Below, piece after piece: positions 23,593-46,642 of a DNA stretch of 64,000 nucleotides. Position numbers and translations under genes: made by a program. The notes under the pieces were generated by a model. That model made no database searches, was not told where the DNA came from, and saw nothing but the letters and a program-made list of their open reading frames with translations. The first letter of the stretch is position 1. Each line of letters opens with the position of its first letter. This DNA comes from Desulforamulus ferrireducens (GTDB taxonomy: Bacteria; Bacillota; Desulfotomaculia; Desulfotomaculales; Desulfotomaculaceae), in the NCBI RefSeq assembly GCF_002005145.1, contig NZ_CP019698.1, forward strand, positions 2,480,001-2,544,000, read 5' to 3'.

Positions 23593-24888
23593 TTATAGTT
23601 CTTTCAGACGCACCTTGACAGCATTGGCATGGGCTTGCAGCCCTTCCACTTCGGCCAGACGCACAATATCCGGCCCCAAGCGCCGCAGGCTTTCCTTAGC
23701 AAAGGAAATAACACTGGACTTTTTCATAAAGGTATCTACATTTAAGGGGGAATAAAAACGGGCGGTGCCGCTGGTGGGTAGTACATGGTTGGGACCGGCC
23801 AGATAATCTCCCACCGGTTCAGGGGAATGGGCACCTAAGAAAACAGCACCGGCATTTTTGATTTGCCCCAGGCAGTCAAAGGGTTGTTCCACCAGCAGTT
23901 CCAGGTGTTCCGGCGCAAACTCATTGGCCAGAGCCAGGGATTCCGCCAAACCACCGGTAATGACTATAGCACTGTGGTTGGCCAGAGCTTCCCGAGCCAT
24001 CTCCTGGCGGGGCAGTTCTGCCAGCTGCCGTGCCAACTCTTGACTAACTGCGGTGGCCAGCTCTGTGTCATGGGTTAGTAAAATGGCCGAAGCCAAACGG
24101 TCGTGTTCCGCCTGGGATAACATATCCGCAGCGGCATAAACCGGATTAGCGGAACTATCTGCCACCACCAACACCTCGCTGGGGCCAGCCAGCATGTCAA
24201 TGCCCACCTGGCCATAGACCAGCCGTTTGGCTAGGGTCACAAAGATGTTGCCCGGTCCGGTAATTTTATCCACCCGCCGAATGGATTCGGTGCCGTAGGC
24301 CAGGGCCGCCACGGCCTGGGCCCCGCCAACCTTATAGATTTCAGTTACCCCGGCTTCCGCTGCTGCCACTAAGGTGTAGGGATTAATACTGCCGTCAGCC
24401 CCGGGCGGGGTGACCATGACAATCTGACTAACCCCGGCCACTTTGGCCGGCACGGCATTCATCAGCACTGAAGAGGGATAGGATGCGGTACCCCCGGGTA
24501 CGTAAATGCCCACCCGTTCCAAGGGCAGGATGAGCTGCCCCAAAATAGTGCCGTCCTCCTCGGGCTGAAACCAGGAACGGGATAGTTGTTTCTGATGATA
24601 TTTTTCGATCCTGTCCTTAGCCAGCCTTAGGGAAGCTAACACCTCTTGATCCACCATGGTATAGGCTTGCTCAATTTCCGCCGGGCTGACCTTTAGCTGG
24701 GAGGTGCTTAGATTAGCACCATCAAAACGTCTGGTAAAGGCACAAAGGGCAGCATCGCCGTTTTGTTGAACCTCAGCCATAATTGCTGCCACCCGGGCGG
24801 TGAGCTGATCTATATCTTCGTTACGCTTATCTAACAGGGAATTCAGTTGTTCCCTATCCGTAGCTTTAATGATTCTAATTACTCCCAT
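23593..24888 (-). CDS. hisD: Histidinol dehydrogenase
   Basis: Zinc- and NAD-dependent enzyme of 431 residues oxidising histidinol to histidine in two steps. Recognisable parts are GIYVPGGTASYPSSVLM, the zinc-site stretches AGPSEVLVVAD and QAEHD, and the C-terminal LPTSGTARFYSPLNVDTFMK. Overlaps hisG by 14 bases. Full family length. Confidence 0.97.
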   Translation of the reverse strand: MGVIRIIKATDREQLNSLLDKRNEDIDQLTARVAAIMAEVQQNGDAALCAFTRRFDGANLSTSQLKVSPAEIEQAYTMVDQEVLASLRLAKDRIEKYHQKQLSRSWFQPEEDGTILGQLILPLERVGIYVPGGTASYPSSVLMNAVPAKVAGVSQIVMVTPPGADGSINPYTLVAAAEAGVTEIYKVGGAQAVAALAYGTESIRRVDKITGPGNIFVTLAKRLVYGQVGIDMLAGPSEVLVVADSSANPVYAAADMLSQAEHDRLASAILLTHDTELATAVSQELARQLAELPRQEMAREALANHSAIVITGGLAESLALANEFAPEHLELLVEQPFDCLGQIKNAGAVFLGAHSPEPVGDYLAGPNHVLPTSGTARFYSPLNVDTFMKKSSVISFAKESLRRLGPDIVRLAEVEGLQAHANAVKVRLKEL

Positions 24889-25543
24889 CCATTAAACCCT
24901 CCTCCACTATCTGCCGCATTTTTTCCACCAACGGGTTGATCCTCTCGCTTTTCAGCCGGTGACTAACCCGGTTGGCAATTAAGCGTGTGGTTGAGCTTAA
25001 CACCTCAGCGATGGGCACCAGTTTGTTTTCTTTCATGGTCCGTCCGGTGGATACCAAATCCACAATCATTTCAGCCAAACCCACAATGGGGGCCAGTTCG
25101 ATATTGCCATGCAGTTTAATAATCTCCATCTGCATGCCATGTCGGCGGAAAAATTCCTCTGCGATATGGGGAAATTTGGTCGCCACTCTGGTTTGATTCC
25201 ACTGTTGCAGTTCCTGTTCTTTACCTTCCGGTACAGCCACCATAAAGCGACAGCCGCCGTATTTTAAATCCAGCAGCTCATAAACATCCTTATGCTGTTC
25301 CACGATAGTATCTTTCCCCACCAATCCTAAATCCGCGGCGCCATATTCCACATAGGTGGGAATATCCGTGGGACGACAAATAATGAAACGAACCGCATCT
25401 GCTTCGGAATAAAGAACCAGTTGACGTCCTGGATCTTTGATGGCCTCTATGTTTAAGCCAGCCAAACCAAGCAGTTTGACCGACGGTTGGTACAGTGTGC
25501 CCTTGGGTAAAGCAATGGTTATCATTTCTTTGGCAGCTACCAA
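24875..25543 (-). CDS. hisG: ATP phosphoribosyltransferase, short form
   Basis: First enzyme of histidine synthesis (ATP + PRPP). This is the 222-residue short form that lacks the C-terminal histidine-binding domain and needs HisZ, whose gene lies upstream. PRPP-site stretch is DLVSTGRTMKENKL; the start is ITIALPKGTLY. TTG at 25541-25543 is well supported by AAAGAGGTGA seven bases upstream, though the internal ATG (codon 7) matches the usual family start. Heads the hisGDCBHAF-IE operon with its own promoter at 25588-25616. Confidence 0.95.
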   Translation of the reverse strand: MVAAKEMITIALPKGTLYQPSVKLLGLAGLNIEAIKDPGRQLVLYSEADAVRFIICRPTDIPTYVEYGAADLGLVGKDTIVEQHKDVYELLDLKYGGCRFMVAVPEGKEQELQQWNQTRVATKFPHIAEEFFRRHGMQMEIIKLHGNIELAPIVGLAEMIVDLVSTGRTMKENKLVPIAEVLSSTTRLIANRVSHRLKSERINPLVEKMRQIVEEGLMDGSN

Positions 25544-25587
25544 GTATCCGTCACCTCTTTAGTTTGTTAAATTATCAACTTACTAAT

Positions 25588-25616
25588 ATGGTAGATTATG
25601 ATTATGATGGTGTCAA
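25588..25616 (-). promoter_or_regulatory. Promoter of the hisG operon
   Basis: Minus-strand TTGACA (25611-25616), 17-base spacer, TACCAT (25588-25593), between the hisZ terminator and hisG. Confidence 0.7.
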
Positions 25617-25646
25617 GGAAAATTTAGCTAATGACAACTAATATTG

Positions 25647-25671
25647 AAAACGCCGGTTGCCCGGCGTTTTT
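25647..25671 (-). terminator. Hairpin terminator between hisZ and hisG
   Basis: ACGCCGG and CCGGCGT pair around a short loop; A-run and T-run flank it on both strands. It overlaps the hisZ stop codon. Partial termination is possible, letting some yerC-hisZ transcripts continue into hisG. Confidence 0.65.
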
Positions 25672-26875
25672 ACACACTAATTTCTTCCTTGTTTCCATCA
25701 GCGTAGAAATAAATCACGCTGGTAGCCCCCAGGGTACGGGCTTCGGCTTTGGCTTTGCCAGGGGGATACTCAAATAAGGCTGTGACTACCTTTAATCCAC
25801 TCTTTCTTAATTCACTAGCTGTTGCCAATGCCTGGGCCATACTTTCGTTTTCCCAAGCCACCAGCACATCTGGCCTGGGTTCTTCGGGTAAGCCATAGAG
25901 TCTTTCCAGGGCTACCATCACCCGATCCAGATTAACTGCAAAGCCAGTGGCTGGCATAGGATAGCCATAGTTGGCCAACAGTTGGTTATATCTGCCGCCA
26001 CCACAGATGGGAAAACCCATGGCCACGGTATAGCCCTCAAAAACTAAGCCAGTATAGTAATCCAATCCCCTGAGCAAGCCTAAATCTAAGGTAATATATC
26101 TCTCCACTCCGTAACAGCTCAGTCCCCTGTATAGTTGACGCAGATTTAGCAGGGCATCGGCGGCTGGACCTTCGTGGGCCAATTCCTTAGCCTTATCTAA
26201 AATCTCCGGCCCTCCCCGCAGTTCAATAAGTTCCAAGGACCTTCTGGCTTCCTCCGGGGTAGCGGCATGGGCGGACAGGATTTCCTCCACTCGGACAAAG
26301 TCCTTATTGCCCAGGGCATCCTTTAGGTTTTGAGCTGCTTCCGCCGGTAAATCCAACTGCTTTACCAAACCATGAAAGATTCCCACGTGACCAATGCTGA
26401 TTTGAAAATCCCCCAGGCCGGTTTGTTTGAGGTATTCCGTAACCAGGGCTACCGCTTCGGCATCGGCCTCAGGGGAGGATGCTCCCATTAATTCTACGCC
26501 GGCCTGATAAAACTCCCGCTGCCGGCCCACCTGGGGCTGCTCGTAGTTAAAAACATTGGCTAAGTAAAAAAGTCTCAGGGGTGGGGTAATACCTTTCATC
26601 CTGGTGGCCACCAAACGGGCCATGGGACGGGTCATGTCCGGGCGCAGAGCCATTAGATGCCCCTGCCGATCTAAAAATTTAAAGAATTTGTCTTCCTGTA
26701 TTTCTTCTGAAGCCAGGTTTTCCATATATTCGAAGGTGGGGGTAACCACTTCTTTATAACCCCAGCCTTCCACCAGGCTGACAAATTGAGCCTTTAAGTT
26801 ACGCATTAGATGGGCTTCCGCAGGCAAGACATCTCTTACCCCCGGAGCCAGTCTACCAAATCTGCTGGATGTCAT
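25670..26875 (-). CDS. hisZ: ATP phosphoribosyltransferase regulatory subunit
   Basis: Histidyl-tRNA synthetase paralogue of 401 residues that binds short HisG and confers histidine feedback control. Class II synthetase motifs are recognisable (LRPDMTRPMARLVATR as motif 2, GLDYYTGLVFEGYT and GGGRYNQLL), but the tRNA anticodon-binding part is not the full HisRS one. The start reads FGRLAPGVRDVLPAEA, common to HisZ. ATG 26873-26875 with AGAGGTGAT upstream, 14 bases after yerC. The pairing with short HisG supports this over HisS. Confidence 0.92.
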   Translation of the reverse strand: MTSSRFGRLAPGVRDVLPAEAHLMRNLKAQFVSLVEGWGYKEVVTPTFEYMENLASEEIQEDKFFKFLDRQGHLMALRPDMTRPMARLVATRMKGITPPLRLFYLANVFNYEQPQVGRQREFYQAGVELMGASSPEADAEAVALVTEYLKQTGLGDFQISIGHVGIFHGLVKQLDLPAEAAQNLKDALGNKDFVRVEEILSAHAATPEEARRSLELIELRGGPEILDKAKELAHEGPAADALLNLRQLYRGLSCYGVERYITLDLGLLRGLDYYTGLVFEGYTVAMGFPICGGGRYNQLLANYGYPMPATGFAVNLDRVMVALERLYGLPEEPRPDVLVAWENESMAQALATASELRKSGLKVVTALFEYPPGKAKAEARTLGATSVIYFYADGNKEEISV

Positions 26876-26889
26876 GGCATCACCTCTTA

Positions 26890-27213
26890 CTATTCTGAAA
26901 TATCATCTGCTAAGGGACTGGGGTCCGGTAATCTGCTTAACACCAGCTTATAGCCGTCGGCACCATAATTCAAACAGCGTTTTACTCGACTAATGGTGGC
27001 GGTACTGGCACCTGTTTTCCCCGCTATTTCACCATAGGTACAATTGGCCTCCAGCATCTTAGCCACTTCCAAACGCTGGGCCAGCGATTGCAATTCAGAT
27101 ACTGTACATATATCCTCAAAGAATCGATAGCATTCATCAATATTCTCCAGGGTGAGTATAGCCTCAAAAAGTCGATCGTTGAGAGGCGCTTTTAATTTGC
27201 CGTTATAACCCAA
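26890..27213 (-). CDS. yerC: YerC/TrpR-like DNA-binding protein
   Basis: 107-residue helical regulator of the YerC/YecD family, which has the TrpR fold. Key stretches are ECYRFFEDICTVSELQSLAQRLEVAKML and the recognition helix region GKTGASTATISRVKRCLNYG. TTG at 27211-27213 is chosen because GGGAGGG lies 7 bases upstream and the length fits; a longer reading from 27273 has no good site. Its place as first gene before hisZ suggests it may regulate histidine synthesis, which is inference. Confidence 0.88.
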   Translation of the reverse strand: MGYNGKLKAPLNDRLFEAILTLENIDECYRFFEDICTVSELQSLAQRLEVAKMLEANCTYGEIAGKTGASTATISRVKRCLNYGADGYKLVLSRLPDPSPLADDISE

Positions 27214-27338
27214 AGGAAATCCCTCCCTATACCTTATATTATGACCAGGAAAAGCATTCCCCATCTTTATCATGTACCCCTTTTCGACGTTAACAAGCTA
27301 AATCCTTTATTATTTTATTGCTTTAAAGAAACAAAATT

Positions 27339-27363
27339 GCCGGTTGTTTGAAGTAACAACCGG
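27339..27363 (-). terminator. Rho-independent terminator of the pur operon
   Basis: GCCGGTTGTT and AACAACCGGC form a 10-bp perfect stem, followed on the minus strand by AATTTTGTTTCTTT. Confidence 0.85.
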
Positions 27364-27428
27364 CTCATGATAGTTTATCTATTGAGTTTAGTATATATAA
27401 TTCCCCGTCACATGTGAATCCCTTTTGG

Positions 27429-40107: not shown

Positions 40108-41484
40108 TTATTCTCCACCCAGGAAGATAAAACGTGCGACAATGATAGCAAAGAGCAAATACATCATCCAGTGAACTTCCTTGGTACGACCGGACGCTAC
40201 CTTGAGAATGGTGTAGAAAATAATGCCGGCAGCAATACCGTTGGCAATATTATAGGTGAAGGGCATTAATATAATGGTTAAAAAGGCGGGGAAGCCTTCG
40301 GTAAAATCATTAAAGTCAATTTCGCCAATGGCAGATACCATCAGTAATCCTACAATAATCAAAGCCGGAGAAGTGGCTGCATTAGGGATTAGACCTGCCA
40401 AGGGAGCGATAACCAAAGCCAACAGAAACATGACACCGGTGGTCACCGCAGTCAGTCCGGTACGTCCACCTTCACCCACACCGGCGGCACTCTCAACAAA
40501 GGCTGTCAAGGTACTGGTACCCATGAAAGCACCAAAGGAAACACCGAAGGCATCAACCAGCATGGCTTTGCCAATTTTCGGGGACTGACCATTTTTATCC
40601 AGCAGCCCTGCCTTGCCGGCAGTTCCCACCAAAGTACCAAAGGTATCGAAGAGTTCCACAAAGGTAAAGGTAAAGACTACGGTCCAAATGCCCATTTCCA
40701 AGGCGCCCATGATATCTAAGTGACCAATATACAGCCCGCTGAAACTGGGCAGGGCGAAGGGAGTAAAGTTTTCGGGAATGACCGTAACGCCCATGGGGAT
40801 ACCAATAAGAGTAGTAATAATAATACCAATTAACAGAGAACCTTTTATCCTTTTGGCCATAAGAATGGCGGTGATAGCCAGGCCGATGATAGCTAACATA
40901 GTTGCAGGGTTATGGAAGGAGCCCATGCTGATATTCCATTCAAAGAACTTTAAGGTGGCCACACCACCCTCCTGTTGCAGGGCTTCCAGGGTGGGGGGAA
41001 TAACCGGACCAGCTTGAATTATGGTAATTTCAGCCATCTTTAAACCAACTATGGTGATGAATAAACCAATCCCTACGGTAATGGCCCGTTTTAGGGAATT
41101 GGGGATGGCTACCATCAGAATTTGACGAACGCGGGTTAGGGTAAGAATAAGAAAGATAATACCGGAAAGAAATACTGCACCCAAAGCAGCTTGCCAGGGC
41201 ATACCCACACCCTGGGCGGCCACAGCGGCAAAGTAGGCATTAAGACCCATACCAGGGGCTAAGGCGATAGGGAAATTAACAAAGAGACCCATAATGATGG
41301 TAATAACACCCGCTGCCACAGCGGTAGCAAAGAACACTGCATTCTTATCCATGCCGGTACCGGCAAGGATGTTGGGGTTGAGGAAGAGGATGTAGGCCAT
41401 GGTCATAAAGGTTGTTAGGCCTGCCACAATTTCGGTTCTTACTGTGGTTTTGTTTTCTTGGAGCTTAAATAACTGTTCCAGCAC
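40108..41484 (-). CDS. NCS2-family guanine/hypoxanthine permease (PbuG/AzgA type)
   Basis: Membrane protein of 458 residues with about 12 hydrophobic segments. Family stretches: TEIVAGLTTFMTMAYILFLNP at the N-terminus, ALAPGMGLNAYFA, SLKRAITVGIGLFI, FTFVELFDTFGTLVG and STLTAFVESAAGVGEGGRTGLTA. This subgroup (AzgA/PbuG/PurP) moves hypoxanthine, guanine or adenine with protons. Start GTG 41482-41484 with AAGGAGG ten bases upstream. First gene of the pur operon, just behind the tandem riboswitch, so uptake and synthesis share control. Confidence 0.92.
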   Translation of the reverse strand: MLEQLFKLQENKTTVRTEIVAGLTTFMTMAYILFLNPNILAGTGMDKNAVFFATAVAAGVITIIMGLFVNFPIALAPGMGLNAYFAAVAAQGVGMPWQAALGAVFLSGIIFLILTLTRVRQILMVAIPNSLKRAITVGIGLFITIVGLKMAEITIIQAGPVIPPTLEALQQEGGVATLKFFEWNISMGSFHNPATMLAIIGLAITAILMAKRIKGSLLIGIIITTLIGIPMGVTVIPENFTPFALPSFSGLYIGHLDIMGALEMGIWTVVFTFTFVELFDTFGTLVGTAGKAGLLDKNGQSPKIGKAMLVDAFGVSFGAFMGTSTLTAFVESAAGVGEGGRTGLTAVTTGVMFLLALVIAPLAGLIPNAATSPALIIVGLLMVSAIGEIDFNDFTEGFPAFLTIILMPFTYNIANGIAAGIIFYTILKVASGRTKEVHWMMYLLFAIIVARFIFLGGE

Positions 41485-41584
41485 TTGATGTCTGCCTCCT
41501 TAAAAATAAAAAAGATAATTGCTGTGTTCCAGTGTTCCTTGGTTTTCCAGGTTATTATTACCTTAATAACCACAAAAAAACCAA

Positions 41585-41644
41585 AAAAGCCCAGAACGAT
41601 AGATTCCAGCTCATATCAGAGTGAAACCTACCGCCTGGGCTTTT
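41585..41644 (-). terminator. Intrinsic terminator acting as riboswitch expression platform
   Basis: Minus-strand AAAGCCCAG (41635-41643) pairs with CTGGGCTTT (41586-41594), then a run of T. Its 5' arm lies inside the conserved GGGATAAAAGCCC motif of the upstream ykkC-type aptamer, so aptamer folding and terminator folding exclude each other. Confidence 0.85.
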
Positions 41645-41723
41645 ATCCCTATCGGTGTAGCGTAAACGCTTGTACCGCTTGGACCAAACCAACTCCATAG
41701 GAATTGTGGAACCCTAGGTACAC
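41624..41723 (-). promoter_or_regulatory. PRPP riboswitch aptamer (ykkC subtype 2)
   Basis: The minus strand reads, in order, CTAGGGTTCC (41708-41717), a TGGTCC segment (41681-41686), an AGCGT/ACGCT hairpin (41659-41670) and GGGATAAAAGCCCAGG (41634-41649). These are the conserved elements of the ykkC fold shared by guanidine-I, ppGpp and PRPP riboswitches. Location directly after a guanine aptamer and before purine genes points to the PRPP subtype, known to occur in that tandem. PRPP binding should block the terminator (ON). Ligand is inferred from context; ppGpp is the alternative. Confidence 0.8.
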
Positions 41724-41727
41724 TTTC

Positions 41728-41796
41728 CCTCCGTAGTCCAGCAATTACGGTTGCCGGGTAGAAACGCTTAGGCCAATTCCCAAGCATATACGGAAA
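41728..41796 (-). promoter_or_regulatory. Purine (guanine-type) riboswitch aptamer
   Basis: Three-way junction readable by eye on the minus strand. P1 is TTTCCGTA (41789-41796) with TACGGAGG; P2 GCTTGGG/CCTAAGC (41779-41785, 41766-41772); J2/3 GTTTCTAC (41758-41765); P3 CCGGCAA/TTGCTGG (41751-41757, 41738-41744); J3/1 GACTAC. The specificity base is C (opposite position 41736), as in guanine riboswitches (U in adenine ones). Located about 20 bases after the promoter start. Confidence 0.92.
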
Positions 41797-41815
41797 TATT
41801 CAATTGCACAAACCA

Positions 41816-41844
41816 ATAGTAACAAGACCAGAATGGTTTGTCAA
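41816..41844 (-). promoter_or_regulatory. Promoter of the purine operon
   Basis: Minus-strand TTGACA (41839-41844), 17-base spacer, TACTAT (41816-41821). Places the transcript start just before the guanine aptamer. A TTGACA -35 and near-consensus -10 suggest strong constitutive initiation with control at the leader. Confidence 0.85.
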
Positions 41845-42101: not shown

Positions 42102-43904
42102 TTATACTTGTTCAGATATAATTAAATCCACAAACTGAAAATTAACGGTATCCACTAAACCACGGTTGGTCAGTCTTAGTTCGGGTAAAACTGCCAAAGG
42201 CAGTAGGGCCATGGTCATAAAGGGCGAAATCAAATGGCAGCCTAACTCTTTCCAAGCCCCATCCAATTGTTCAACCATCTCTGCTACCCTTTCCACCGAC
42301 TGGTCGGACATTAGGCCGGCGATGGGCAGAGGCAACAACGCGATTACTTGGCCATCCCGCACCGCTACCATACCGCCGCCCACCTCTGCCAGTTTGTTAC
42401 CAGCCAGGGCCATATCAGCATCATTGGTACCTACCACCAACAGGTTGTGGCTGTCATGGGCCACAGTGGAGGCTACCGCCCCAGCCTGGAGGTGAAAGCC
42501 CTTAACAAATCCTTTGCCCATGGTACCAGTGGCTTTGTGGCGTTCAATAACTGCCACCTTGATAATATCCTGTGCCAGATCAATCTGCACTTCACCTTGG
42601 TGTACGGGCAGCAGGCATTGCCGGGCCAAGGTACCCACCTTGGCTTCCATAATTTCCATTACCCGCACTTCAGCAGCGGTAGCCTGTGCATTTTGGGTGG
42701 TTACCACAAAATCCGACGGCTTTAATGGTGCCGCTAAGTGCATGGACTGACGGGCAAAATCCGGGTAAGTCACCGCTGGCAAGTCCAGCAGCATGCGTCC
42801 CTCTGCTGCCACCAGTTCCCCGTTGACCAGCACCTTTTCCACCTTCACTTTGGTTAAATCGCTAATTAATAAGATATCTGCCCAACGACCAGGAGAGATA
42901 CTTCCCAGATCGCGATCCATACTAAAGCACTGAGCCACATTGATGGTGACCATCTGGATAGCTGTCACCGGGTTTACCCCTTCCTCAATGGCCCGGCGTA
43001 CAATATGATCCAGATGACCCAAAGAAATCAGGGTATCCGGATGGGTATCATCACTTATTAGTGTAGCATAGCGGGAATCCACACGGTTTTCGGTAATACT
43101 CTTGATGGTTTCTTTTACATCATGCCAAGCCGAGCCTTCCCTCAATTGGGCATACATGCCTAAACGCATTTTGGCTAAGGCATCCTCAGCTCGTACCGAT
43201 TCATGACAACAGCGAACACCGGTGGAAATATAGGCATTTAACCCTTGGCCGGTTTCCGGGATAGAAAAGTGTCCGGTAATGGTTTTGTTTGCCTCCAGAG
43301 TTGCCTGGAGTTCAGCATGAATGTTCGCATCACCGTAGATAACACCAGGGAAATTCATCATTTCCCCTAGTCCGACTACTTCCTCCCATTGCATAGCCTC
43401 CCGAATTTCCTGCGGCCCCAAAACGGCACCGGCATCTTCAAAGGCAGGCGTGGCAGGTACACAGGAAGGCATGGCCACATATACCCTGAGAGGTACCTGT
43501 TTGCCTTCTTCAATCATTAACTTAATACCGTCCATGCCCAAGACATTGGCAATTTCGTGGGGGTCCATAAATATGGTGGTGGTACCCCGTGGTACCACGC
43601 TGCGGGCATATTCCTTCACTGTCATCATGCTGCTCTCCACGTGAATATGACCATCCATAAAACCCGGTGTTAAATAACAACCCTGACAGTCGATAACCTG
43701 AGTGCCCTCGCCAATGGTATGGGTAGCATCACCCACCAGGGCAATCCGACCATGGGTAATGGCAACATCCATATTGGGCATAATTTCACCCGTGTTGACA
43801 TTGACCAGTCGGCCATTCTTTAAAACTACCTCCGCCGGTTGACGGCCCATGGCCACAGCCACCAATTCCTGGGTTACCTCTGCCAGTGGATATCTCTTTT
43901 TCAT
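42102..43904 (-). CDS. ade: Adenine deaminase
   Basis: Amidohydrolase-superfamily enzyme of 600 residues converting adenine to hypoxanthine for salvage. Metal site GHIHVESSM, then FMDPHEIANVLG, GHFSIPETG, SDDTHPDTL and GSISPGRWADILLI; a C-terminal domain (AHDSHNLLVVGTND, EVGGGMVAV) completes the Ade-type architecture. ATG at 43902-43904 has GGGAGG eight bases upstream; an upstream in-frame reading from 43994 would overlap the PilZ gene. Product hypoxanthine feeds Hpt, encoded nearby. Confidence 0.96.
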   Translation of the reverse strand: MKKRYPLAEVTQELVAVAMGRQPAEVVLKNGRLVNVNTGEIMPNMDVAITHGRIALVGDATHTIGEGTQVIDCQGCYLTPGFMDGHIHVESSMMTVKEYARSVVPRGTTTIFMDPHEIANVLGMDGIKLMIEEGKQVPLRVYVAMPSCVPATPAFEDAGAVLGPQEIREAMQWEEVVGLGEMMNFPGVIYGDANIHAELQATLEANKTITGHFSIPETGQGLNAYISTGVRCCHESVRAEDALAKMRLGMYAQLREGSAWHDVKETIKSITENRVDSRYATLISDDTHPDTLISLGHLDHIVRRAIEEGVNPVTAIQMVTINVAQCFSMDRDLGSISPGRWADILLISDLTKVKVEKVLVNGELVAAEGRMLLDLPAVTYPDFARQSMHLAAPLKPSDFVVTTQNAQATAAEVRVMEIMEAKVGTLARQCLLPVHQGEVQIDLAQDIIKVAVIERHKATGTMGKGFVKGFHLQAGAVASTVAHDSHNLLVVGTNDADMALAGNKLAEVGGGMVAVRDGQVIALLPLPIAGLMSDQSVERVAEMVEQLDGAWKELGCHLISPFMTMALLPLAVLPELRLTNRGLVDTVNFQFVDLIISEQV

Positions 43905-43905
43905 G

Positions 43906-44250
43906 TCACAAATCCTCCCTGCATGATTTTGCAAAACTGGTTTTACTGTCATATAAAAAATTAGCCAATATCGCCAATTTATCTGTATCTTCATAAAATT
44001 CTACGCAGGCTGCATTATGCATTACCCGCACCACTCTGGCACTCAGCCTCAGGATAAGTTCAGGCAAATAAATGCCCAGATCAATTTCCTGCCCCACCGT
44101 CAGACGTTGCGGCGTGAAGAAAAATGCCCCACAGGCAGAGACATTTATGGTTTTACAGTTAACCACCCGTGAGTTAAGTTCATAGCTCAATGGCAGCTCT
44201 ATATTTATTCGTGTATATTTACGCCGCTCTTTATCTATTGTTACTTTCAT
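43906..44250 (-). CDS. Stand-alone PilZ-domain protein
   Basis: 114 residues, essentially one PilZ domain that binds cyclic di-GMP. The RKYTR box (RxxxR) is at residues 10-14, and the NVSACG box follows about 25 residues later. No other domain. Its stop is one base before the ade start and ade's ribosome site lies inside its 3' end, so the two are co-transcribed; a link between purine salvage and c-di-GMP signalling is only suggested by position. Start ATG with no strong SD seen. Confidence 0.8.
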   Translation of the reverse strand: MKVTIDKERRKYTRINIELPLSYELNSRVVNCKTINVSACGAFFFTPQRLTVGQEIDLGIYLPELILRLSARVVRVMHNAACVEFYEDTDKLAILANFLYDSKTSFAKSCREDL

Positions 44251-44328
44251 ACGCTACCCCTAAACGAGAATACAACAAATAGAGGTTTGCCATATTTTTC
44301 TTTTATCCTTCTTTTTCAAACAAAAAGA

Positions 44329-44344
44329 GTGGCTTTGCAGCCAC
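44329..44344 (-). terminator. Terminator downstream of guaA
   Basis: Minus-strand GTGGCT-GCAA-AGCCAC followed by TCTTTTTG. About 170 bases after the guaA stop. Confidence 0.65.
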
Positions 44345-44474
44345 CCAAAAGCGTAATACACCAAAGAGGTATTACTTTATATTACAAGAATCATGCCAGA
44401 AAAATAGGGTGCGTATAAAGATAAATATTGTGCCAATTTGGAGCATCCTGTCTTTTCTTTCTGAAACGTAGAAC

Positions 44475-44505
44475 GACCAACTGTTCAATAAAAGAACAGC
44501 TGGTC
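44475..44505. other. GACCAACTGTTC/GAACAGCTGGTC inverted repeat after guaA
   Basis: Twelve-bp arms with one mismatch and a 7-base AT loop, starting 8 bases after the guaA stop. On the minus strand no T-run follows, so termination here would be weak. The rest of 44251-44474 shows only the terminator at 44329-44344. Confidence 0.5.
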
Positions 44506-44512
44506 AAAAATC

Positions 44513-46054
44513 TTACTCCCACTCAATGGTGCCAGGGGGCTTGGAGGTGATGTCGTAAACCACACGGTTAATCTCGGGCACTTCGTTCACGATACGGGTG
44601 GAGATTTTACCTAACACCTCATAGGGAATCTTAGCCCAATCGGCGGTCATGCCATCGTGGCTATAGACAGCCCGAACCACGGCAGCATAAGCATAGGTAC
44701 GTTCATCACCCATGACACCAACGGAACGCATGTCAGGTAGGACGGCAAAGTACTGCCAGATTTCTTTATCTAAACCTGCCTTTTTAATCTCATCGGTTAC
44801 CACAAAGTCTGCTTCCCTTAAAATATCCAGCTTTGCTTTGGTAATCTCACCAAGAATTCTTACAGCCAAGCCCGGGCCGGGGAAGGGTTGACGCCAGACA
44901 ATCTCGGAGGGTAGGCCCAATTCTTCGCCCAACCGACGTACTTCGTCCTTAAACAGCCAGCGCAGGGGTTCCACCAAGGCAAATTTCATATCCTCCGGCA
45001 GACCACCCACGTTGTGGTGGGATTTAATCACCGCTGCTGTGGCGGTACCGCTCTCCACCACATCCGGGTATAAAGTACCCTGAACCAGAAAATCAATCTC
45101 ACCCAGTTTTCTGGCTTCTTCTTCAAAGACACGAATAAATTCAGTACCAATGATTTTCCGTTTCTGTTCCGGGTCGGTGACACCCTTTAATTTACCTAAA
45201 AAGCGCTCGGATGCATCCACATGCACCAGCTTGATATTAAACTTATCTCGAAAGGTCTGCACCACCTGCTGAGCCTCATTTTTTCTCAGCAGACCGTGAT
45301 CCACAAAGACACAGGTAAGATTATCACCCACCGCCCGATGTACCAAAACAGCCGCCACCGAGGAATCCACACCGCCGCTGAGAGCACACAACACCTTGCG
45401 GTTACCCACTTTGTTTTTCACATCTCGCACTGCTTCCTCGAGGAAGGAACCCATATTCCAAGTGCCACTGCAACCACAGATATCAAAAAGGAAATTCTTT
45501 AGTATTTCCGTACCTTTGGGAGTATGTACAACCTCAGGATGGAACTGTACGGCATAAAGCTTTTGTTCCTTATTGGCCATTGCCGCAATGGGGGCTTTAT
45601 CGGTGCTAGCGGTTATTTCAAAGCCCGGTGGCACTGCCTCTACTCTGTCTCCGTGACTCATCCAGCATTCTTCATCTGCCAGCAGACCTTTAAATAAATG
45701 ATCACACTGATGCACCTTCAGGTTGGTGCGCCCATATTCCCGATCCTCGGCAGCAACAACTTTACCTTGTAATTGGTGGGTCATCAGTTGCATACCGTAG
45801 CAGATGCCCAGCACGGGAACACCCAACTGGTAAATTTGGGGATCAATGGTGGGTGCCTTCTCCCCGTAAACACTGGAAGGGCCACCGGAAAAAATTATGC
45901 CCTTGGGTTTTTTGGCTTTTAATTTATCTATGGGTGCGTTAAAGGGTTCAATTTCACAGTATACATTGCAATCCCTGATGCGGCGGGCAATGAGTTGGGT
46001 ATATTGCCCCCCAAAATCCAGGACGAGAATCAGTTCCTGTTCGGCTAAAGACAT
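44513..46054 (-). CDS. guaA: GMP synthase (glutamine-hydrolysing)
   Basis: Converts XMP to GMP; 513 residues. N-terminal class I glutaminase with C85 in GICYGMQL and [10 protein letters not shown]; central PP-loop ATPase domain [12 protein letters not shown]-terminal dimerisation domain ending PPGTIEWE. Twelve bases after hpt, so both are probably in one transcript. ATG with GGAGG upstream. Confidence 0.98.
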
Positions 46055-46066
46055 GCCATGGCCTCC

Positions 46067-46606
46067 TTAAATCTGGTATATTTCCGGTTTTAATACAGCA
46101 ATATAGGGTAAATTGCGGTATCTCTCATTGTAATCCAAGCCATAACCCACAACAAATTCATCGGGTATGGAGAAACCGTTATAATCTACGGGCACTGCCA
46201 CTTTACGGCGACTGGGCTTGTCCAGCAAGGTGCAGATCTTCAAGCTGGCAGGACCCCGGGCTTTCATGTTTTCCACTAAATACTGCAAGGTCAAGCCAGT
46301 ATCAACAATATCCTCCACAATAATGACATGCCTGCCATGGATACTTTTCTCCAAATCCTTTAAAATACGCACAGCCCCGGAGGATACAGTACCGGCGCCA
46401 TAACTGGATACTGCCATAAAATCAAAAAAGGTTGGCACATTAATATGGCGTACCAAATCAGCTAAAAAGATCATGGCACCCTTTAAAATTCCTACCATAA
46501 GGATACTTTCACCCTGGTAGTCCTGAGAAATCTGCCGACCTAACTGAGCTACCCGTTCTTTGATTTGCTCTTCATTTAACAGTATTTTTTCCACATCGGG
46601 ATGCAT
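46067..46606 (-). CDS. hpt: Hypoxanthine (guanine) phosphoribosyltransferase
   Basis: Salvages hypoxanthine/guanine with PRPP to IMP/GMP; 179 residues. PRPP motif VIIVEDIVDTGLTL, FMAVSSYGAGT flexible loop and VGYGLDYNERYRNLPYI near the end. ATG 46604-46606 has AAGGAGTG upstream; a reading from 46639 lacks a site. Together with ade and the NCS2 permease it forms the salvage branch, and it competes with PurF for PRPP. Confidence 0.96.
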   Translation of the reverse strand: MHPDVEKILLNEEQIKERVAQLGRQISQDYQGESILMVGILKGAMIFLADLVRHINVPTFFDFMAVSSYGAGTVSSGAVRILKDLEKSIHGRHVIIVEDIVDTGLTLQYLVENMKARGPASLKICTLLDKPSRRKVAVPVDYNGFSIPDEFVVGYGLDYNERYRNLPYIAVLKPEIYQI

Positions 46607-46642
46607 TTTTTTCACTCCTTGCCAATGAATGCCTACCAACAG

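What the first reader, a model, noticed from the sequence alone, without database searches (positions are those of the whole stretch)
41585..41844. Tandem guanine-PRPP riboswitch controlling the whole IMP operon and a purine permease
One strong promoter, then a guanine-type aptamer, then a ykkC-type aptamer with CTAGGGTTCC and GGGATAAAAGCCCAGG, then one terminator whose 5' arm is part of the second aptamer. Guanine-PRPP tandems acting as a two-input (IMPLY) gate have been described by the Breaker laboratory, so the class is known. What is notable is the architecture here: a single platform, complete operon behind it, and a nucleobase permease as first gene so that uptake is also under PRPP control. 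A prediction follows: guanine present and PRPP low gives OFF; PRPP high keeps it ON.
Basis: partly seen in the sequence, partly recalled or inferred. Interest (0 to 1): 0.85.

Follow-up and report, generated by a model that had tools for sequence, protein, structure and literature searches.

The report
Guanine–PRPP tandem riboswitch before purine genes
The leader RNA of this purine-synthesis operon carries a guanine sensor and a PRPP sensor side by side that share one off-switch; it is a good example of a known two-signal RNA switch, and having a purine importer as first gene is common for the class.

Summary
Minus strand 41844-41583 carries one promoter, a guanine-type purine aptamer, a ykkC aptamer with PRPP (subtype 2b) signatures and one terminator that takes in the second aptamer's P3 strand. 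It leads an AzgA-like permease plus purEBCSQLFMNHD. Rfam returned one ykkC family (guanidine-I), so it cannot decide the ligand. A tandem model trained without this genus and its recognised relatives gives 141 bits here and 42.5 for the genome's own guanidine-I RNA. The class is known (Sherlock 2018; 192 counted in a 2022 review). The features called notable are ordinary: shared terminator in 75 of 83 tandems, NCS2 permease first in 36 of 79. What I add: (1) comparative support for strand sharing: the guanine P1 3' strand also pairs with the PRPP aptamer's tail (extended P0). Knappenberger 2018 proposed this from one predicted structure; my event-level support is modest. (2) A wider regulon than the papers state: xpt, adenine deaminase, a phosphorylase family, ABC importers. 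(3) This genome's second tandem reads antisense through a cold-shock gene, conserved in 6 of 6 same-genus copies. Ligand binding and logic were not tested; folding energies alone favour OFF without ligands.

The parts
41816..41844 (-). promoter: TTGACA (41844-41839), 17 nt, TACTAT (41821-41816) with TG before the -10
   Evidence: consensus match only
41728..41796 (-). guanine-type purine aptamer; P1 5' strand 41796-41789, P1 3' strand 41735-41728, specificity C at 41736
   Evidence: RF00167, 73.7 bits over 41813-41714; coordinates
41618..41724 (-). PRPP-type ykkC aptamer with its P0 tail: A5/G6 41724-41723, P1 41722-41717 with 41676-41671, C49 41677, C77-C78 41655-41654, P3 GGG/CCC 41649-41647 with 41639-41637, G96 41635
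   Evidence: RF00442 over 41728-41630; numbering of PMC6031431 transferred by my own alignment
41724..41732 (-). shared strand: GGAGGGAAA is the 5' strand of extended P0; its 41728-41732 is also guanine P1 3' strand
41618..41626 (-). 3' strand of extended P0 (UUUCACUCU); also lies in the terminator's upper 5' arm and loop edge
41583..41644 (-). single intrinsic terminator: 5' arm 41644-41619, loop 41618-41613, 3' arm 41612-41585, U tract 41588-41583
40108..41484 (-). NCS2 permease, AzgA-like (the only solved relatives found are the adenine/guanine permeases AZG1 and AZG2); GTG start, AGGAGG at 41500-41495
   Evidence: PF00860
27487..40089 (-). purE B C S Q L F M N H D: PRPP to IMP, no purK
27339..27364 (-). 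terminator-like hairpin after purD, likely end of the operon

Best explanation
A tandem guanine-PRPP riboswitch with one terminator. The last residues of the guanine P1 3' strand (41728-41732) can pair either with P1's 5' strand or, continuing from GAAA, with the tail UUUCACUCU (41626-41618), which closes P0 of the PRPP aptamer. The pocket and tail (P3 3' strand, G96, G104, UUUCACUC) form the terminator's 5' arm. Guanine locks P1, frees the tail and the terminator forms: OFF. PRPP locks P0/P3 and blocks the terminator: ON, also against guanine. The output feeds purine import and IMP synthesis when PRPP piles up unused. Shown here: anatomy, signature residues, covariation and the shared strand. 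Inferred: ligands, direction of each response, the state without ligands, and the physiology.
For: Both aptamers over Rfam cut-offs. Tandem model R1, 42 sequences with this genus and recognised relatives left out by list: 141.3 bits here, 141.2 for the genome's second tandem, 42.5 for its guanidine-I RNA. Signatures: position 78 is C in 84 of 84 tandems and G in 22 of 22 guanidine-I-like RNAs; position 49 a pyrimidine in 75 of 78 parsed tandems (G in 3) and A in 21 of 21 parsed guanidine-I-like; G at the 96 equivalent in 84 of 84 (also in 22 of 22 guanidine-I-like, so it speaks against ppGpp only); this element has C49, C78, G96. Extended P0: matched strands -8.19 kcal/mol against -6.52 (sd 0.21) when dealt among 66 distinct combinations, 0 of 5000 as good; 90.5% of cells paired against 31-53% when slid, covariation score and double-changed cells reached by 0 of 500 shuffles; P1 on the same columns 88.4%. 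The terminator takes CCC and G96 in 75 of 83 tandems. Full tandems head permease-pur operons in 7 of 8 congeners.
Against: Relatedness inflates; two of five measures (pairs with a change on both sides 358/500, further pair types 179/500) do not exceed shuffles. Event counts on a tree are modest in the shared columns: same-branch changes with the P0 strand at column 72 p 0.018, column 70 p 0.046, column 68 p 0.17, column 71 none (uncorrected). Several congeners have an extra G in the P1 3' strand without a matching base in the tail (L093; L189, L194, L202). In this element the two outer P1 pairs are U-G and the P0 core (4 pairs) can coexist with P1, so only the outer P0 pairs exclude it. Without ligands ViennaRNA prefers P1 (-60.8 against -56.7) and, at full length, the terminator (-88.7 against -66.9), which by itself predicts OFF, not the ON of an IMPLY gate. 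The lineage lacks one pocket nucleotide (position 101).
Confidence: 0.9

Rival explanations
1. The second aptamer is a guanidine-I riboswitch, as its best Rfam name says.
For: RF00442 is the only family hit there, 66 bits over a cut-off of 63.
Against: Three bits above the cut-off, while the genome's guanidine-I RNA before two small-multidrug-resistance genes scores 87.9. C49 and C78 are the subtype-2 letters; guanidine-I-like RNAs have A in 21 of 21 parsed and G in 22 of 22, and none of the 22 has the parsed AGG tail. Purine operon behind it.
Confidence: 0.02
2. The second aptamer senses ppGpp (subtype 2a).
For: 2a and 2b are nearly alike; both have a pyrimidine at 49 (PMC6031431).
Against: G at the 96 equivalent; PMC6031431 reports >97% G in PRPP aptamers and A, C or U but not G in ppGpp aptamers, one change switching specificity about 40,000-fold. 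Purine genes, guanine partner. No ppGpp model was at hand to score.
Confidence: 0.04
3. Same parts, but default OFF: PRPP is needed for expression and guanine only makes it harder, so the gate is not IMPLY in this lineage.
For: Folding energies favour P1 plus terminator without ligand; a very stable terminator (-34.9 kcal/mol, median of 75 is -35.0); P0 core and P1 can coexist here.
Against: The tested member (B. megaterium codA, PMC5912903) is ON without ligands; energies ignore kinetics and tertiary contacts; terminators this stable are usual in the class.
Confidence: 0.25
4. Chance resemblance or dead remnant.
For: None found.
Against: E values 3.4e-11 and 1.7e-9, directly adjacent; full tandems before the same operon in 7 of 8 congeners and the PRPP half in the eighth.
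Confidence: 0.005

Closest known systems
Tandem guanine-PRPP riboswitch, B. megaterium codA (PMC5912903: introduction, results and discussion read)
   Same: Order of aptamers, 5 nt between the two P1 stems (published: 5 to 7), one shared terminator overlapping the PRPP aptamer, purine-related genes.
   Different: Different genes; this lineage has one nucleotide fewer at position 101 and one more after CACC than most tandems here; logic untested here.
T. mathranii tandem, PRPP aptamer crystal structure (PMC6031431: structure section and discussion read)
   Same: P0 helix, G96, and the proposal that P0 and guanine P1 exclude each other, made there from a predicted secondary structure.
   Different: Here tested on 42 and 66 distinct tandems by covariation; in this element the overlap starts one pair further out than in most members.
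Singlet PRPP riboswitches (subtype 2b)
   Same: Aptamer, P0 and terminator overlap; several PRPP-type RNAs without a visible guanine aptamer occur in the same order (by eye; partial-score matches).
   Different: No guanine aptamer in front.
Guanidine-I riboswitch (RF00442)
   Same: Shared ykkC scaffold and Rfam name.
   Different: A49, CACG, no P0 tail, detoxification genes.

Membership tests
Guanine riboswitch (RF00167, guanine subtype) | Covariance match over cut-off, three-way junction | tested here: met
   73.7 bits, cut-off 37, full length
Guanine riboswitch (RF00167, guanine subtype) | C (not U) at the base-pairing position of J3/1 | tested here: met
   GGACTACGG, C at 41736; rule recalled
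Guanine riboswitch (RF00167, guanine subtype) | Binds guanine, turns expression off | not testable with these tools
   needs probing and transcription
PRPP riboswitch (ykkC subtype 2b) | ykkC scaffold | tested here: met
   RF00442 66 bits
PRPP riboswitch (ykkC subtype 2b) | Pyrimidine at 49 (subtype 2, against A in guanidine-I) | tested here: met
   C; rule from PMC6031431
PRPP riboswitch (ykkC subtype 2b) | G at 96 (against ppGpp) | tested here: met
   numbering transferred by my alignment, crystal sequence not fetched
PRPP riboswitch (ykkC subtype 2b) | P0 helix closing the aptamer, with A5, G6, A103, G104, G105 | tested here: met
   letters present in the sequence
PRPP riboswitch (ykkC subtype 2b) | Purine at 101 (>75% in PMC6031431, called weakly conserved) | tested here: not met
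   position absent here (10 nt, not 11, from CCC through AGG); not a defining feature
PRPP riboswitch (ykkC subtype 2b) | Binds PRPP, turns expression on | not testable with these tools
   needs probing and transcription
Tandem guanine-PRPP IMPLY gate | Guanine aptamer directly upstream, 5 to 7 nt between P1 stems | tested here: met
   5 nt, 41727-41723
Tandem guanine-PRPP IMPLY gate | One terminator shared, overlapping the PRPP aptamer | tested here: met
Tandem guanine-PRPP IMPLY gate | OFF only with guanine and without PRPP | not testable with these tools
   folding energies alone do not predict ON without ligands
Guanidine-I riboswitch | A at the 49 equivalent and CACG | tested here: not met
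ppGpp riboswitch (subtype 2a) | No G at the 96 equivalent | tested here: not met
   rule from PMC6031431

The most novel reading that the evidence does not exclude
In this genus the guanine-PRPP gate is a small regulon rather than a purine-synthesis switch. One copy drives permease plus IMP synthesis, one (6 of 9 genomes) a nucleoside-type ABC importer, and one (4 of 9) adenine deaminase, a xanthine-dehydrogenase-like molybdopterin protein and a second importer. In the importer copy, read-through RNA is antisense to a whole cold-shock gene that ends against the riboswitch terminator, so a two-input RNA gate would also silence a cold-shock protein.
Probability: 0.3. Interest if true: 0.6.

Novelty: new member of a known kind. 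Interest (0 to 1): 0.38.

Why it matters
It settles what this leader is and why Rfam names it otherwise. The comparative test gives broad sequence support, the first I found (searches), for how the two aptamers are coupled, which the 2022 review calls not yet established. [quoted passage not shown]

Tried and rejected
Rfam as arbiter of the ligand: rejected, only one ykkC family was returned for the stretch even at E up to 1. Permease-first as the special feature: rejected by the census. A coupled one-nucleotide shift in the PRPP pocket (+1 after CACC, -1 at 101) looked like a new pocket type: 19 of 20 tandems with the short 3' side have the long 5' side, but singlets of the same order break the coupling (by eye), so I leave it as lineage variation. 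A same-genus RNA with its guanine hairpins missing and P1 kept (L124/L205; no Purine match) looked like a natural deletion test: its contig has many broken pur frames, so it may be a sequencing fault. Tree-based event counts gave only modest support in the shared columns. State without ligands by energy: not decisive. purK in the own genome: 3 relatives below the cut-off, none over it. Paper search for Desulforamulus with riboswitch gave 0; the genus name is my inference from named near-identical loci. PMC5912904 and passages of PMC10687018 added nothing against or beyond the above.

Rows and choices: one search gave 104 stretches; scripts kept 109 distinct rows, 103 of the 104 (L033 equals L010) plus 6 from held genomes. 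By eye I moved 5 rows into the tandem set (L012, L016, L035, L061, L106) and took L027 out, giving 84 tandems (78), 22 guanidine-I-like, 2 without a guanine aptamer (L023, L048) and 1 chance match (L020). Duplex statistics used 75 of 84 (8 not parsed, L067 odd). The first-gene count used 79 of 84 (5 with under 700 nt). The covariation alignment has 42 rows: from those 75, this genus, recognised relatives and L076 were left out by list and rows over 93% alike were dropped; some remaining rows are unclassified metagenome bins. The pattern demands conserved letters, so it misses divergent members.

Full report
What is there. The minus strand of 41844-41583 holds, in order, a promoter-like site, a purine aptamer, a ykkC aptamer and one terminator. 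The purine aptamer scores 73.7 bits and has C at the specificity position (41736), so guanine type. The ykkC aptamer scores 66 bits against a cut-off of 63. The 5'UTR ends at AGGAGG and a GTG start at 41484. The first gene is an NCS2 permease whose only solved relatives found are the adenine/guanine permeases AZG1 and AZG2. Then follow purE, B, C, S, Q, L, F, M, N, H and D, with no purK in the genome over its cut-off. A hairpin with a T-rich tail follows purD.

Which ligand for the second aptamer. Rfam returned only RF00442 for it. I therefore used the signature positions of PMC6031431 (structure section and discussion read). Numbering was transferred by fitting the listed contact letters on Thermoanaerobacter-type sequences; the crystal sequence was not fetched. 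The element has C49, C77-C78, G96, A103, G104 and G105, with A5-G6 at its start. Among 84 tandems position 78 is C in 84 and the 96 equivalent is G in 84; position 49 is a pyrimidine in 75 of 78 parsed rows and G in 3. Among 22 guanidine-I-like RNAs position 78 is G in 22, position 49 is A in 21 of 21 parsed, and the 96 equivalent is G in 22. So 49 and 78 exclude guanidine-I and 96 speaks against ppGpp. A tandem covariance model built from 42 sequences, with this genus and recognised relatives left out, gives 141.3 bits here, 141.2 at the genome's second tandem and 42.5 at its guanidine-I RNA, which lies before two small-multidrug-resistance genes.

How it is coupled. The guanine P1 3' strand UACGGAGG (41735-41728) runs into GAAAG, the start of the PRPP aptamer. 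GGAG.GAAA can pair with the tail UUUC.CUC (41626-41619), extending the P0 helix seen in the crystal structure. The overlap with P1 is 41728-41732. Across tandems this extended P0 is supported. Matched strands give -8.19 kcal/mol against -6.52 (sd 0.21) when dealt at random among 66 distinct combinations, 0 of 5000 as good. On 42 rows 90.5% of cells pair against 31-53% when slid, with 23 double-changed cells; paired cells, double-changed cells and covariation score are reached by 0 of 500 shuffles, while two other measures are not exceptional (358 and 179 of 500). P1 on the same strand has 88.4% and 25 cells, with the same two measures weaker (43 and 85 of 500). One congener (L130) has an extra A in the P1 3' strand and an extra T in the tail; others have an extra G in the P1 strand without a matching base (L093; L189, L194, L202). 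On a tree the support by events is weaker: for P0, column 74 p 0.0004, column 72 p 0.018, column 70 p 0.046, columns 68 and 71 not significant; for P1, column 68 p 2e-5, column 71 p 0.037, columns 70 and 72 not significant (uncorrected). In 75 of 83 tandems the terminator's 5' arm contains the P3 3' strand and G96, and in 45 of those 75 at least half of the P0 3' strand. So P1(G) and P0 share a strand, and the PRPP pocket and terminator share another. Guanine should favour P1 and the terminator; PRPP should favour P0/P3 and read-through.

Limits. In this element the P0 core can coexist with P1, so only the outer P0 pairs are exclusive. Without ligands ViennaRNA favours P1 (-60.8 against -56.7 before the terminator is made) and then the terminator (-88.7 against -66.9). 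That alone would predict OFF without ligands, unlike the tested B. megaterium switch. Kinetics and tertiary contacts are not in these numbers. No binding or transcription was tested.

What is known. PMC5912903 (introduction, results and discussion read) described 257 PRPP aptamers, 127 in tandem, tested one tandem as an IMPLY gate, and left the coupling open between steric and base-pairing models. PMC6031431 proposed P0/P1 exclusion from a predicted secondary structure. PMC9481103 (passages) counts 192 tandems and says the structural changes are not established. My searches for later work listed no test of the exchange; subscription journals are largely missing from that library.

Is the architecture special. 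In 79 tandems with at least 700 nt downstream, the first gene is an NCS2 permease in 36 (29 with pur genes seen behind), a BMP-family importer protein in 9, purE 7, purD 7, a PurL-type gene 7, purC 3, xpt 3, a phosphorylase of the MTA/purine-nucleoside kind 3, purK 2, adenine deaminase 2 (by tblastn with this genome's proteins; xpt, purK and the phosphorylases by NCBIfam, the phosphorylases below its cut-offs). So permease-first is the commonest layout.

The same RNA elsewhere in the genus. Each of the 9 genomes searched has an R1 match over 120 bits. The permease-pur operon follows a full tandem in this genome and in 7 of 8 congeners; in the eighth (G008) the RNA before it has lost its guanine hairpins, on a contig with many broken frames. 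A second tandem heads a BMP gene in 6 of 9 genomes; in this genome it is followed by an ABC protein and two permease proteins. A third heads adenine deaminase and a BMP gene in 4 of 9; in three of these a xanthine-dehydrogenase-like molybdopterin protein lies between, the fourth (G008) has broken frames and was not checked. In 6 of 6 copies of the second tandem a cold-shock gene lies antisense between terminator and BMP, 84.6-100% identical in protein. In three relatives with BMP first (L022, L109, L135) BMP follows within 160 nt. Between terminator and BMP the scans found no promoter-like site on the riboswitch strand (own genome only). Antisense control by read-through is an established idea (search listing only).

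Verdict. The finding is real and well read. It is a new member of a known kind; the points called notable are typical of the class. The strand-sharing test, the wider regulon and the antisense cold-shock arrangement are the parts worth a second look.

Noticed in passing
G000:C1:2249187-2249371(-), L002 and L187: Second guanine-PRPP tandem (141.2 bits) in the own genome. Between its terminator and a BMP-ABC-permease-permease operon lies a cold-shock gene on the opposite strand, conserved in 6 of 6 same-genus copies.
   Followed up: partly
L192, L198, L201, L204 (G002, G006, G007, G008): Third tandem heading adenine deaminase and a BMP importer gene; in the first three a xanthine-dehydrogenase-like molybdopterin protein lies between.
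   Followed up: partly
L124 / L205 (G008): RNA whose guanine aptamer lost P2 and P3 but kept a P1 stem before the PRPP aptamer; the contig has many broken frames, so possibly a sequencing fault.
   Followed up: partly
window 41657-41627 and relatives: PRPP pocket with one nucleotide less at position 101 and one more after CACC, in 19 of 20 short-tailed tandems; singlets vary.
   Followed up: partly
G000:C1:1325163-1325258(-), L001: Guanidine-I RNA (87.9 bits) before a pair of small multidrug-resistance genes.
   Followed up: partly
window 42102-46639(-): Adenine deaminase, guaA and hypoxanthine phosphoribosyltransferase lie just upstream of the tandem; no RNA family match there in the window scan.
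   Followed up: no
window 23593-27273(-): YerC, hisZ, hisG and hisD follow the pur operon: another PRPP-using pathway, behind a hairpin at 27364-27339 and with a promoter-like site at 27418-27390.
   Followed up: no
L203 (G007:C1:2508000-2518700): A lone purine aptamer (96 bits) directly before another NCS2 permease (38% identical), explaining a partial model match there; a c-di-GMP-I and a Moco riboswitch and a tRNA-Sec lie nearby.
   Followed up: partly
G006:C40:94847-95028: Partial tandem-model match (72.7 bits) about 2 kb upstream of a full tandem, with no Rfam match over cut-off; nature not determined.
   Followed up: no
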